A DNA stretch of 38,624 bases, from contig JAPYWV010000005.1 in the NCBI GenBank assembly GCA_028276165.1, forward strand, positions 1 to 38,624, in the 5' to 3' direction. The notes under the pieces were generated by a model. That model was given only the letters and a program-made list of their open reading frames with translations. It was not told the DNA's origin and ran no database searches. Position numbers and translations under genes: made by a program. Below are positions 3,348-34,651 of this stretch, one piece after another; positions within the stretch are counted from its first letter, which is position 1; each line of letters begins with the position of its first letter. This DNA comes from Acidilobaceae archaeon (lineage in GTDB: Archaea; Thermoproteota; Thermoprotei_A; Sulfolobales; Acidilobaceae).

Positions 3348-3498
3348 ACACTTAAACCCACACCCATAACAGGCTGTTACGGAGCTGACGGTAGATTTAA
3401 ATAGCTGTAGATAGCTGTAAATACTTGGTGTAATGGTGCTGGGTGAGCCGTCAAAGATCGTGTGGGAGGTTGCCACAGTTCTATAGCTAAACAGCAGG

Positions 3499-3507
3499 TA
3501 TTTAAGC
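3499..3507 (+). promoter_or_regulatory. TATA-like box upstream of the structured RNA
   Basis: TATTTAAGC. Transcription would begin near 3528, directly before the first kink-turn hairpin and about 190 nt before the acylphosphatase start codon. A second TATA-like TTTAAATA lies at 3396-3403, followed by the tandem repeat AGCTGTAGAT/AGCTGTAAAT. Confidence 0.4.
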
Positions 3508-3527
3508 TTCGGAGGGGGAAGGATTAA

Positions 3528-3695
3528 TGGATACAGCTCCCCGTTGATCCGCACTACGGTGAGGGGGGCTGTTGGTAGGCCTACTCAGATGGGAGCCCTA
3601 TGGCGTTGGGCTCGACCGGGGCCCATGAGGTGTGGGTGAAGCTAATGATCTCACACCAAGGCCCAACCCCGCTAACGAAAATACCGTTAGCGGGG
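3528..3695 (+). ncRNA. Structured RNA with a kink-turn and a K-loop (leader or guide-like RNA)
   Basis: No convincing ORF, but strong folding by eye. Hairpin 1: AGCTCCCC (3535-3542) pairs with GGGGGGCT (3563-3570) and encloses a textbook kink-turn, with bulge GTT, then G-A, A-G and U-U pairs, then CCG/CGG. Hairpin 2: GTTGGGC (3605-3611) pairs with GCCCAAC (3661-3667); above it GGTGTGGG pairs with CTCACACC and is capped by a K-loop (TGA-AGCTAAT-GAT), the apical motif of archaeal H/ACA RNAs. Hairpin 3 is the perfect inverted repeat at 3667-3695. Kink-turns of this type are L7Ae-binding sites. No clear ACA box follows hairpin 2 and its pocket is lopsided, so H/ACA identity is uncertain. It could equally be a long 5' leader of the acylphosphatase gene. 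Confidence 0.4.
3667..3695 (+). terminator. Perfect 11-bp inverted repeat before the acylphosphatase gene
   Basis: CCCCGCTAACG, a 7-nt loop AAAATAC, then CGTTAGCGGGG, ending 22 nt before the TTG start. It is too perfect to be chance in this context. It could terminate the upstream RNA or act as a leader switch: CGGGG at 3617-3621 can pair alternatively with CCCCG at 3667-3671, and GGGCC at 3619-3623 with GGCCC at 3660-3664. No U-tract follows, so termination is only one reading. Confidence 0.4.
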
Positions 3696-3717
3696 AAACG
3701 CTAGTAGGTGGCAGAGC

Positions 3718-4002
3718 TTGAGTGAGAGGGTGAGAGCACACCTCATAGTAAGAGGCCTAGTACAAGGGGTATACTTTAGAGCTAATATGAAACGTGTGGC
3801 GGAGGAGCATGGTGTGAAAGGGTGGGTTAGAAACCTACCAGATGGTGAGACAGTCGAAGCGGTACTAGAGGGTGATAGGAGCTCCGTCGAGAAGGTCATA
3901 TGCTGGAGCCTGAGGGGGCCACCGCTAGCAGAGGTGAGGGAGGTTCACGTTAGATTCGAGGAGTACAAGGGGGAGTTCAAGACATTCACCATAAGATACT
4001 AG
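3718..4002 (+). CDS. acyP: Acylphosphatase
   Basis: Small (94 aa) enzyme hydrolysing the carboxyl-phosphate bond of acylphosphates in the cytoplasm. The family signature is clear: [40 protein letters not shown]. It contains the phosphate-binding Arg (in YFRAN) and the catalytic Asn (in VRNLPDG). Length matches the single-domain family. The TTG start at 3718 has a GGTGG purine run 9-10 nt upstream. The gene is preceded by an unusual structured, gene-free stretch of about 190 nt and ends 16 bp before the convergent end of the 134-aa gene. Confidence 0.93.
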
Positions 4003-7232: not shown

Positions 7233-7336
7233 TGGAGCCGGGGCCGGGATTCGAACCCGGGATTCAACGGGTCTCCGCTATAGGCCCAGCTCTAACCACT
7301 GCAGCCCGCCGCCTTAGACCGCTCGGCCACCCCGGC
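7233..7336 (-). tRNA. tRNA-Cys (GCA) with an intron
   Basis: On the minus strand the acceptor GCCGGGG pairs with CCCCGGC. The D arm is GCC...GGC. The anticodon loop CTGCAG/A carries GCA after intron removal, and the T arm is CCGGG-TTCGAAT-CCCGG. The discriminator is U73, a tRNA-Cys identity element, and CCA is encoded at 7233-7235. A 26-nt intron interrupts it at the canonical 37/38 position. A TATA-like box (CATATAAATAAGC) lies about 31 nt upstream. Without removing the intron it is easily misread as a class II tRNA. Confidence 0.92.
7273..7298 (-). other. tRNA-Cys intron
   Basis: Minus-strand TGGTTAGAGCTGGGCCTATAGCGGAG, inserted between G37 and A38. Removing it restores a 7-nt anticodon loop and a 5-bp GCGGG/CCCGT stem. 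It should be cut by the archaeal tRNA splicing endonuclease at a bulge-helix-bulge. Exact ends may shift by one or two bases. Confidence 0.8.
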
Positions 7337-33151: not shown

Positions 33152-34651
33152 TTGGGGTTGTCTCCGCCTGTGGGTGAAGTGCTTGGAAGGATGACCCAAG
33201 GGGGGACGATTCCCCGAATTGTACCCATGGGTGGAGGCCCCGACCCCCTCCGGGCTCTCAGAGAGGAGATTGAAAGAAGGCTGAGCAGCAACTGGAGGAT
33301 TGTTAGGCTAAGACTGCTACCCACAGGGGTTGAGCACGGGAGCCTTATGGGTATAGGCTTGACGTGCGTTAAGCTCTACAACGAGCTTAACTACGAGAAG
33401 AGGCAGGCATTCTTCAAGGGAGAGCTCACCAGGGATAAGATGCGTGAGATTGACAGGAAGTACTACTACAAGTACAAGGATGTCCTAGGTGTTAATGCTC
33501 AAGCTGTTATACAGAAGAATGATGAGGCTTGGAGCTCTTTCTTCGAACTGTTAAAGCTTAAGAATCAAGGCAAACTACCACCACACATCAAGAAGGTTTC
33601 ACCACCAGGATACTGGAAGGATAGGCTTACCGGTAAGAAGGAGGCACGCATACTAGTTAGAAGTGATAGGTACCACTTGGAGCCCATAGATGAGAATGGA
33701 GGTTATCTTGTACTAGAAGACTTCGGATTGAGGATAAGGTTTGCTGGTAGGATTAGGTGGGAGGGTAAGCAGGGAAGACTTGAAATAGTATACACTAATG
33801 GTAGGTGGTTTGCCTACCTACCAATAGAGGTTGGAAGAGAACCACCAAAATCAAACAGGAAAGGCTACGTAAAACCTAACTACAAGGATAGAAAGGGTAG
33901 AATCGTAAACCCTAAGAGTATCAAGCAGAGGGATCCTATTGGTGATGAGAAAGCATTCATGGACATGGGGTTGAACAACCTATTCGCTGTAGTCACGACA
34001 AACGGCTACGTACTACTAGTCAAAGGTGGTACCATCAAGTCTGAGTATTATTGGTGGAAGAGGGAGATAGCAACATACCAGGCTGTAAGAGATCTACTTA
34101 GAAACGCTGGGTTCCCAACGTGGATCTTATACCATGAGAGGTACCTTGAGGCAATGCATACCAGGGATGAGAGGCTTAGACACCTGTACAAGACATCAAT
34201 TAGATTCCTAGCAGAAGCACTGTGGAATAGGGGTGTCCGCAAGCTGTACATAGGATACCCGATAATGCTATCACAGGACAATGGGAACGAGTATAATACA
34301 AACATATGGTGGTACAGGAAGATAGTGTTATGGATTGTGGATGTGTTTAGAGAGTATGGTATGGAGGTTGAGCTTGTACCAGAGTACTATACAAGCAGGG
34401 AATGCTCTGTATGCGGTGAAATACACGAGAACGGCAGGATTTACAGAGGCTTGTATGTCTGCAGGAGGACCGGGAGGAAGATAAACGCAGATGTAAACGC
34501 AGCACTAAACATAGCAAGAAGACAGGGGTACAAGGTAAAGATAACAAGAAAGATTGAAAGCTACATTGTAACACATAACGGTGTAAAACCATTAAACCCC
34601 GCTCGGAGGGCTAACACCCAAGACCCAGAGATTCGAAACCCCGCCCTCTAA
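33152..34651 (+). CDS. tnpB: TnpB RNA-guided nuclease homologue
   Basis: Transposon-encoded, ancestor-of-Cas12-type protein, 499 aa from TTG 33152. The family N-terminus is WRIVRLRLLPTG (about residue 48 on); the 45 residues before it are probably an annotation extension, and ATG 33227 (MGGGPDPL) is a likely start. RuvC-I Asp is D271 in FMDMGLNNL. RuvC-III is NADVNAALNIA. The zinc finger reads CSVCG ... YVCRRTGRKIN, the fourth Cys being Thr. The canonical RuvC-II Glu (EDL type) is not seen: that strand reads KLYIGYPIML. A Glu in VELVPEYYTSRECSVCG may be a rearranged substitute. The stop codon lies in the loop of the right-end hairpin, where a guide (omega) RNA would normally start. Confidence 0.9.
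   Translation: MGLSPPVGEVLGRMTQGGTIPRIVPMGGGPDPLRALREEIERRLSSNWRIVRLRLLPTGVEHGSLMGIGLTCVKLYNELNYEKRQAFFKGELTRDKMREIDRKYYYKYKDVLGVNAQAVIQKNDEAWSSFFELLKLKNQGKLPPHIKKVSPPGYWKDRLTGKKEARILVRSDRYHLEPIDENGGYLVLEDFGLRIRFAGRIRWEGKQGRLEIVYTNGRWFAYLPIEVGREPPKSNRKGYVKPNYKDRKGRIVNPKSIKQRDPIGDEKAFMDMGLNNLFAVVTTNGYVLLVKGGTIKSEYYWWKREIATYQAVRDLLRNAGFPTWILYHERYLEAMHTRDERLRHLYKTSIRFLAEALWNRGVRKLYIGYPIMLSQDNGNEYNTNIWWYRKIVLWIVDVFREYGMEVELVPEYYTSRECSVCGEIHENGRIYRGLYVCRRTGRKINADVNAALNIARRQGYKVKITRKIESYIVTHNGVKPLNPARRANTQDPEIRNPAL

What the first reader, a model, noticed from the sequence alone, without database searches (positions are those of the whole stretch)
3496..3717. Kink-turn plus K-loop RNA in front of the acylphosphatase gene
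The gene-free stretch folds by eye into two stable hairpins. One contains a textbook kink-turn (bulge GTT, G-A, A-G, U-U); the other is capped by a K-loop like those of archaeal H/ACA RNAs. A TATA-like box sits just upstream. In a region dominated by leaderless mRNAs, a leader of about 190 nt with two L7Ae-type sites is unusual. It may be a new guide RNA or an L7Ae-controlled leader of acyP.
Basis: partly seen in the sequence, partly recalled or inferred. Interest (0 to 1): 0.72.

Follow-up and report, generated by a model that had tools for sequence, protein, structure and literature searches.

The report
Stand-alone transposon guide RNA with kink-turn
The structured RNA in front of the acylphosphatase gene is a 331-base mobile element that has lost its protein genes but keeps, behind its own promoter, a guide RNA of the kind that directs the DNA-cutting enzyme TnpB, and that RNA carries a kink-turn, a fold that archaeal protein L7Ae normally recognises.

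Summary
The hairpin at 3534-3571 has a textbook kink-turn signature, and the hairpin at 3629-3657 has a K-loop-like loop. Both lie in a 331-bp repeat, 3371-3701, with at least 18 tnpB-less copies in this genome (11 of this type) and many more across the order. The same-genus genome G002 lacks it upstream of the same acyP gene, so it is an insertion, not an acyP-specific leader. In relatives the same RNA core is the 3' end of tnpB in IS607 elements (serine-recombinase tnpA plus tnpB), and the same kink-turn lies inside tnpB about 140 nt upstream of the core. The finding is therefore a tnpB-less omega-RNA (right-end guide RNA) element: left end, TATA box, kink-turn hairpin, omega-RNA core with pseudoknot, right end; the flank from 3703 would be the guide. 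Covariation is strong, also among stand-alone copies alone. Insertion sites read AGGC or close to it, the predicted TAM. Full-length TnpB genes of this family are in the same genome, so action in trans is likely but unproven. L7Ae binding is untested. Protein-less 'ghost' omega-RNA loci are described for Fanzor; I found no archaeal IS607 kink-turn version.

The parts
3371..3701 (+). tnpB-less IS607-derived element (class I solo omega-RNA element), 331 bp
   Evidence: Sharp ends in alignments with other own-genome and G002 copies; empty sites
3371..3374 (+). AGGC, left-end start; matches the target sequence (predicted TAM), GC being the shared crossover dinucleotide
   Evidence: AGGC at this place in the empty sites of copies L029 and L037, AGGT and AGTC in two others; the acyP site of G002 itself reads AAAT
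3371..3430 (+). left end (AGGCTGTTACGGAGCTGACGGTAGATTTAAATAG...), shared with complete IS607 elements of relatives
3499..3506 (+). TATA-like box TATTTAAG in front of the RNA
   Evidence: Similar boxes about 27-60 nt upstream of the kink-turn UGA in nearly all stand-alone copies and not in tnpB-linked ones (one exception, a GTTTAAG 14 nt upstream)
3534..3571 (+). kink-turn hairpin: C-stem, bulge GUU 3543-3545, G-A/A-G/U-U, NC-stem
   Evidence: Covariation in tnpB-linked copies and in stand-alone copies; core columns UGA/UGA 2.0 bits in stand-alone copies
3593..3613 (+). omega-RNA stem P2 3593-3598/3608-3613; its loop 3603-3607 (GCGUU) is one half of the pseudoknot
   Evidence: pseudoknot pair exchanged to CCGUU/AACGG in a second subfamily
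3619..3664 (+). omega-RNA stem P3: outer helix 3619-3623/3660-3664, hairpin 3629-3636/3650-3657 with K-loop-like loop UGAAGCUAAUGAU 3637-3649
3667..3695 (+). right-end hairpin 3667-3677/3685-3695
3697..3701 (+). AACGC, right terminus and second half of the pseudoknot; last two bases GC are the crossover dinucleotide
3703..3722 (+). predicted guide (flanking DNA just past the element; 3702 = right-flanking nucleotide); overlaps the acyP start
   Evidence: Flank differs at every site; guide position by analogy with IS607 TnpB (PMC10711439); no second TAM+guide match in this genome
3718..4002 (+). acylphosphatase gene into whose upstream region the element inserted
   Evidence: PF00708 E 5.4e-25; empty ortholog in G002

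Best explanation
Window 3371-3701 is a non-autonomous IS607-family element that has lost tnpA and almost all of tnpB but keeps the two ends and a complete omega-RNA. Shown here: it is a conservative insertion of an element whose targets are AGGC-like; its RNA core equals the 3' end of tnpB in complete IS607 elements; the kink-turn hairpin comes from inside the tnpB reading frame; the coding stretch between kink-turn and core (about 97 nt) has been removed; a TATA box stands in front. Inferred: an RNA of about 190 nt starts near 3530, folds with its 3' end (AACGC) pairing to the P2 loop, and is taken up by TnpB made elsewhere in the genome, with the flank from 3703 as guide. The complex would recognise AGGC plus guide, that is, the unoccupied copy of the same site on a sister or incoming chromosome, and cut it, so that repair copies the element back. 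The occupied site is spared because the guide match is then preceded by AAACGC instead of AGGC. For acyP the result is a transposon-derived leader and possibly a new promoter.
For: Repeat, present in many copies. Empty acyP site in G002 and empty sites for further copies with AGGC, AGGT or AGTC in place. Core at the 3' end of tnpB-like ORFs in several relatives; one complete element has an IS607 transposase (NF033518 E 4e-61, PF00239 E 5.6e-22) and TnpB (TIGR01766 E 5.4e-11). TnpB of this family in this genome, L049 and L050: TIGR01766 E 2.6e-16 and 6.6e-16, RuvC D / alternative E / D kept; predicted fold of a relative's TnpB matches Cas12f and TnpB (8exa E 1.4e-8, 8iaz E 8.1e-8). Kink-turn-core spacing is bimodal: 136-149 nt in tnpB-linked and 30-53 nt in stand-alone loci. 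Covariation; pseudoknot exchange.
Against: No transcript or protein data. No IS607 tnpA over cut-off in this genome (87% complete) or in G002 (94%), so present mobility is uncertain. An unoccupied AGGC + guide site for another copy (L029) exists in the same assembly (C99), which argues against constant cutting, or reflects strain mixture in the assembly. The pre-insertion sequence of the acyP site itself is not recoverable: G002 reads AAAT where AGGC is expected. The zinc-finger cysteines usual in TnpB are missing, so nuclease activity is not assured. Seven stand-alone copies (class II) have another 5' hairpin.
Confidence: 0.82

Rival explanations
1. A dead miniature element: the omega-RNA is only a fossil carried between transposon ends that were moved by a transposase; the RNA has no role.
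For: No tnpA now in this genome or G002; a tolerated self-target; some degenerate copies (L209, L048).
Against: In stand-alone copies alone the pairs are kept by compensatory changes (59 double-changed cells against 12.4 in shuffles, 0/500); the kink-turn core is near-invariant although no longer coding; a TATA box is placed in front in nearly all; spacings and upstream sequences differ, suggesting that kink-turn and core were kept together more than once.
Confidence: 0.15
2. An L7Ae-controlled leader of acyP: L7Ae binds the kink-turn in the 5' leader and represses translation.
For: Kink-turn and K-loop-like loop present; same strand as acyP; L7Ae-family genes present; L7Ae control of its own leader is known (PMC5539422, PMC6298567).
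Against: The element is absent upstream of acyP in G002 and sits at many unrelated sites. An incidental effect on acyP in this strain remains possible.
Confidence: 0.04
3. A co-opted regulatory RNA: the TnpB/omega-RNA pair persists without transposase as an RNA-guided repressor or genome-defence tool (TldR-like).
For: Many copies with different guides and TnpB without tnpA in two genomes of the genus; zinc finger lost and canonical RuvC-II glutamate replaced.
Against: A conserved alternative glutamate is kept in all 12 proteins, the arrangement of Ealt TnpBs and Fanzors (PMC10711439); guides are simply the local flanks.
Confidence: 0.08
4. An archaeal H/ACA or C/D box guide RNA for rRNA or tRNA modification.
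For: Kink-turn and K-loop are hallmarks of these RNAs.
Against: No match to any Rfam family at E below 1 (best chance hits E 1.1 and 3.3); the RNA is part of a transposon and overlaps tnpB in relatives.
Confidence: 0.01

Closest known systems
Right-end RNA / omega-RNA of IS607 TnpB (ISXfa1, PMC10711439; RAGATH-18-derived reRNA of ISFba1, PMC11061315)
   Same: IS607 ends with crossover at a dinucleotide, RNA at the 3' end of tnpB running into the flank as guide, G-rich TAM next to the left end; RAGATH-18 RNA also shows a possible kink-turn
   Different: Archaeal sequence family with no Rfam match for the window; kink-turn hairpin lies far upstream inside tnpB; predicted TAM AGGC instead of GGG, AGGAG or GAGGG; here the RNA stands alone
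'Ghost' Spu-1 elements of Fanzor1 in Spizellomyces punctatus (PMC10432273)
   Same: Many protein-less elements that keep the transposon ends and an omega-RNA related to that of the protein-coding loci; there the ghost RNA was shown to work with the protein
   Different: Eukaryotic, inverted-repeat elements; here archaeal IS607, kink-turn, and a TATA box set before the RNA
PATEs (palindrome-associated transposable elements), non-autonomous IS200/IS605 relatives
   Same: Short non-coding derivatives of tnpB-bearing insertion sequences (own knowledge; not compared here)
   Different: IS200/IS605 type; I did not find an omega-RNA role described in the papers I could search
Ealt TnpB / Fanzor-like IS607 TnpB (PMC10711439)
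   Same: RuvC-II glutamate moved about 46 residues downstream, IS607 context
   Different: RuvC-I motif is DVN or DGN, not DPG; no zinc-finger cysteines
L7Ae-bound kink-turns of archaeal sRNAs and the L7Ae leader (PMC5539422)
   Same: Same motif signature
   Different: Host is a TnpB guide RNA; binding untested

Membership tests
IS607 element | Serine-recombinase TnpA with N-terminal HTH plus TnpB in complete copies | tested here: met
   L056: NF033518 E 4e-61, PF00239, HTH_17, overlapping TnpB; TnpA-like ORFs also in L106, L120, L134, L098. The window copy itself has neither gene
IS607 element | No target duplication, crossover at a matching dinucleotide | tested here: met
   Empty sites have four bases at the junction (AGGC for two copies, AGGT, AGTC); shared GC at both ends
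TnpB omega-RNA | RNA overlaps the 3' end of tnpB and ends at the transposon right end, with variable flank as guide | tested here: met
TnpB omega-RNA | Pseudoknot between an internal loop and the 3' end next to the guide | tested here: met
   GCGUU/AACGC in this family, CCGUU/AACGG in a second subfamily; nearly invariant within the main family
TnpB omega-RNA | Bound and used by TnpB to cut TAM + guide DNA | not testable with these tools
   needs biochemistry
TnpB nuclease (partner protein) | TnpB family model and RuvC D-E-D | tested here: met
   TIGR01766 over cut-off; RuvC-I D in 11 of 12, alternative E in 12 of 12, RuvC-III D in 11 of 12; fold match. NF040570 hit is below its cut-off (44.4 of 100 bits) and the zinc-finger cysteines are absent
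RAGATH-18 RNA | Matches the covariance model | tested here: not met
   No Rfam match to the window stretch other than two chance hits at E 1.1 and 3.3
Kink-turn (Kt-7 type) | C-stem, 3-nt bulge, tandem G-A/A-G, NC-stem | tested here: met
   3534-3571; conserved and covarying
L7Ae ligand | Binds L7Ae | not testable with these tools
   L7Ae-family genes exist in the genome
Archaeal H/ACA or C/D sRNA | Match to a known family of such RNAs | tested here: not met
   the RNA belongs to a tnpB element. Target complementarity to rRNA was not tested

The most novel reading that the evidence does not exclude
The kink-turn and K-loop make the archaeal ribosomal and sRNP protein L7Ae a host cofactor of the TnpB guide RNA: L7Ae stabilises stand-alone omega-RNAs made from their own promoters, and these RNAs feed a transposase-free TnpB with many different guides in trans.
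Probability: 0.25. Interest if true: 0.8.

Novelty: new variant of a known kind. Interest (0 to 1): 0.62.

Why it matters
It shows protein-less omega-RNA genes, each with its own apparent promoter, spread through an archaeal order and outnumbering tnpB in this genome. The deletions act as a natural mapping experiment: coding-only sequence was lost while the kink-turn hairpin, P2, P3, pseudoknot and right-end hairpin stayed. It gives a directly testable TAM (AGGC), guide position and nuclease family (alternative-glutamate TnpB without zinc finger), and raises the question whether L7Ae takes part in guide-RNA complexes.

Tried and rejected
Rfam at gathering and E 10: only two tRNAs in the window, chance hits in the stretch. 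RNase P RNA: found elsewhere in the genome. A protein of the stretch: reading frames broken in stand-alone copies. A left-flank TAM of IS605 type: no motif upstream of AGGC. Profile search of TnpB against PDB sequences: no relevant hit, so fold comparison was used; the model is weak in its C-terminal half (mean pLDDT 56). Pfam misses this TnpB above cut-off. TnpB genes found first with PF07282 are other families. Other targets of the window guide in this genome or G002: none with up to two mismatches besides the occupied site. L7Ae RIP-seq paper (PMC5539422): no mention of transposons in the main text. The bacterial hits of the core pattern lacked the right end and are taken as chance.

Full report
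What was seen is there. The stretch folds better than 198 of 200 shuffles, though the other strand does as well, so energy is not the argument. The kink-turn sits at 3534-3571 and the K-loop-like loop at 3637-3649. No Rfam family matches.

The stretch is a repeat. A search of 60 genomes found 29 matches in this genome, and 49 of the 60 genomes have a match at E 1 or better, many of them weak. Copies align from AGGCTGTTACGG (3371) to GGGGAAACGC (3701) and their flanks are unrelated. A search with the whole element, followed by reading the copies, gives at least 11 copies of this type (class I), seven of a second type (class II, same core, other 5' part; one cut by a contig end) and seven joined to tnpB coding sequence, in a genome judged 87% complete.

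It is an insertion. In same-genus G002, whose acyP protein is 94% identical, the gene has no such element. Joining the flanks of twelve copies and searching four genomes gave empty sites for several copies. At the junction there are four extra bases: AGGC (copies L029 and L037), AGGT (L042), AGTC (L041), and AAAT at the diverged acyP site of G002. Since the left end begins with AGGC and the right end closes with GC, this fits a crossover at GC without target duplication, as IS607 elements do (PMC4058570, PMC10711439).

It belongs to tnpB elements. In relatives the core is the 3' end of reading frames ending in ...GAINIGLKYLSSDGSPVALGST..., and one complete element has an IS607 transposase followed by an overlapping TnpB. 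These TnpB proteins match TIGR01766 over its cut-off; two of three tested also match NF040570, below its cut-off. They carry RuvC-I D, no glutamate at the usual RuvC-II place, a conserved glutamate about 46 residues further on, and RuvC-III D, which resembles the alternative arrangement described for Fanzors and related IS607 TnpB (PMC10711439). The zinc-finger cysteines are missing. A predicted structure, good only in its N-terminal half, matches Cas12f and TnpB best.

The kink-turn comes from tnpB. In tnpB-linked copies the same hairpin encodes ...LVIRTAV... 136-149 nt upstream of the core; in stand-alone copies the distance is 30-53 nt. The intervening coding stretch has been deleted while hairpin and core were kept, with several spacings and different upstream sequence; I take this as more than one origin, but no tree was made. 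In stand-alone copies, where no protein is encoded, the UGA/UGA core is invariant and the hairpin still covaries. In nearly all stand-alone copies a TATA-like box stands about 27-60 nt upstream of the kink-turn UGA, so the transcript would begin close to the hairpin.

Structure. Five helices of the core are paired in 94.6% of cells with 138 double-changed cells (38.4 in shuffles); in stand-alone copies alone 94.9% and 59 against 12.4. Sliding the partners destroys the signal in both. The pseudoknot GCGUU/AACGC is nearly invariant in this family and is replaced by CCGUU/AACGG in a second subfamily. Control (a) of the counting tool does not remove relatedness, so these counts are strong but not probabilities.

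Mechanism. Most likely the RNA is loaded into TnpB from elsewhere in the genome and directs it to AGGC + flank, the unoccupied form of the same site, promoting retention of the element. Family, structure, target and insertion are shown; transcription, loading and cutting are inferred from IS607 and Fanzor work (PMC10711439, PMC11061315, PMC10432273). Against: no tnpA over cut-off here or in G002, a tolerated unoccupied site for one copy (C99), missing zinc finger. L7Ae-family genes are present, but whether L7Ae binds is open. Class II copies lack the clear kink-turn, so it cannot be indispensable.

Known or new. Stand-alone omega-RNA loci are known for Fanzor ('ghost' elements, PMC10432273), and a possible kink-turn is noted for bacterial RAGATH-18 RNA of IS607 TnpB (PMC11061315). 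The only library paper joining TnpB and kink-turn was the latter; the library is incomplete. I rate this a new variant of a known kind.

Noticed in passing
G000 contigs C158 (two copies), C102, C10, C132, C116, C63 (L196-L200, L206, L212): A second type of stand-alone omega-RNA element: left end AGGCTATTACAAG, TATA-like TTATAAG, palindrome GATACTACGTAGTATC and a 5' hairpin GGGUGCU..AGCACCC with a UGAUGA...UUGA loop resembling C/D boxes. One copy (L206) has an exchanged P3 stem.
   Followed up: partly
window 33152-34651 (+): A different, zinc-finger-bearing TnpB (PF07282) with a GC-rich hairpin at its 3' end; a related one lies on contig C29 (L022).
   Followed up: no
window 7233-7336 (-): tRNA-Ala: ARAGORN gives 7233-7310 with anticodon AGC, Rfam 7236-7336 (101 nt); probably an intron-containing tRNA with a wrong anticodon call.
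   Followed up: no
L012, L015-L020: Second omega-RNA subfamily in the same order with right end GGGACAAACGG and loop CCGUU; its TnpB (L017) seems to have a canonical RuvC-II glutamate.
   Followed up: partly
G000:C99:351-534: Unoccupied AGGC site matching the guide of copy L029 in the same assembly; the host sequence is itself repeated.
   Followed up: partly
L107 and L135 (two genomes): Two stand-alone copies share the left flank (ttggattaaacaat) but have different right flanks, suggesting recombination between copies.
   Followed up: no
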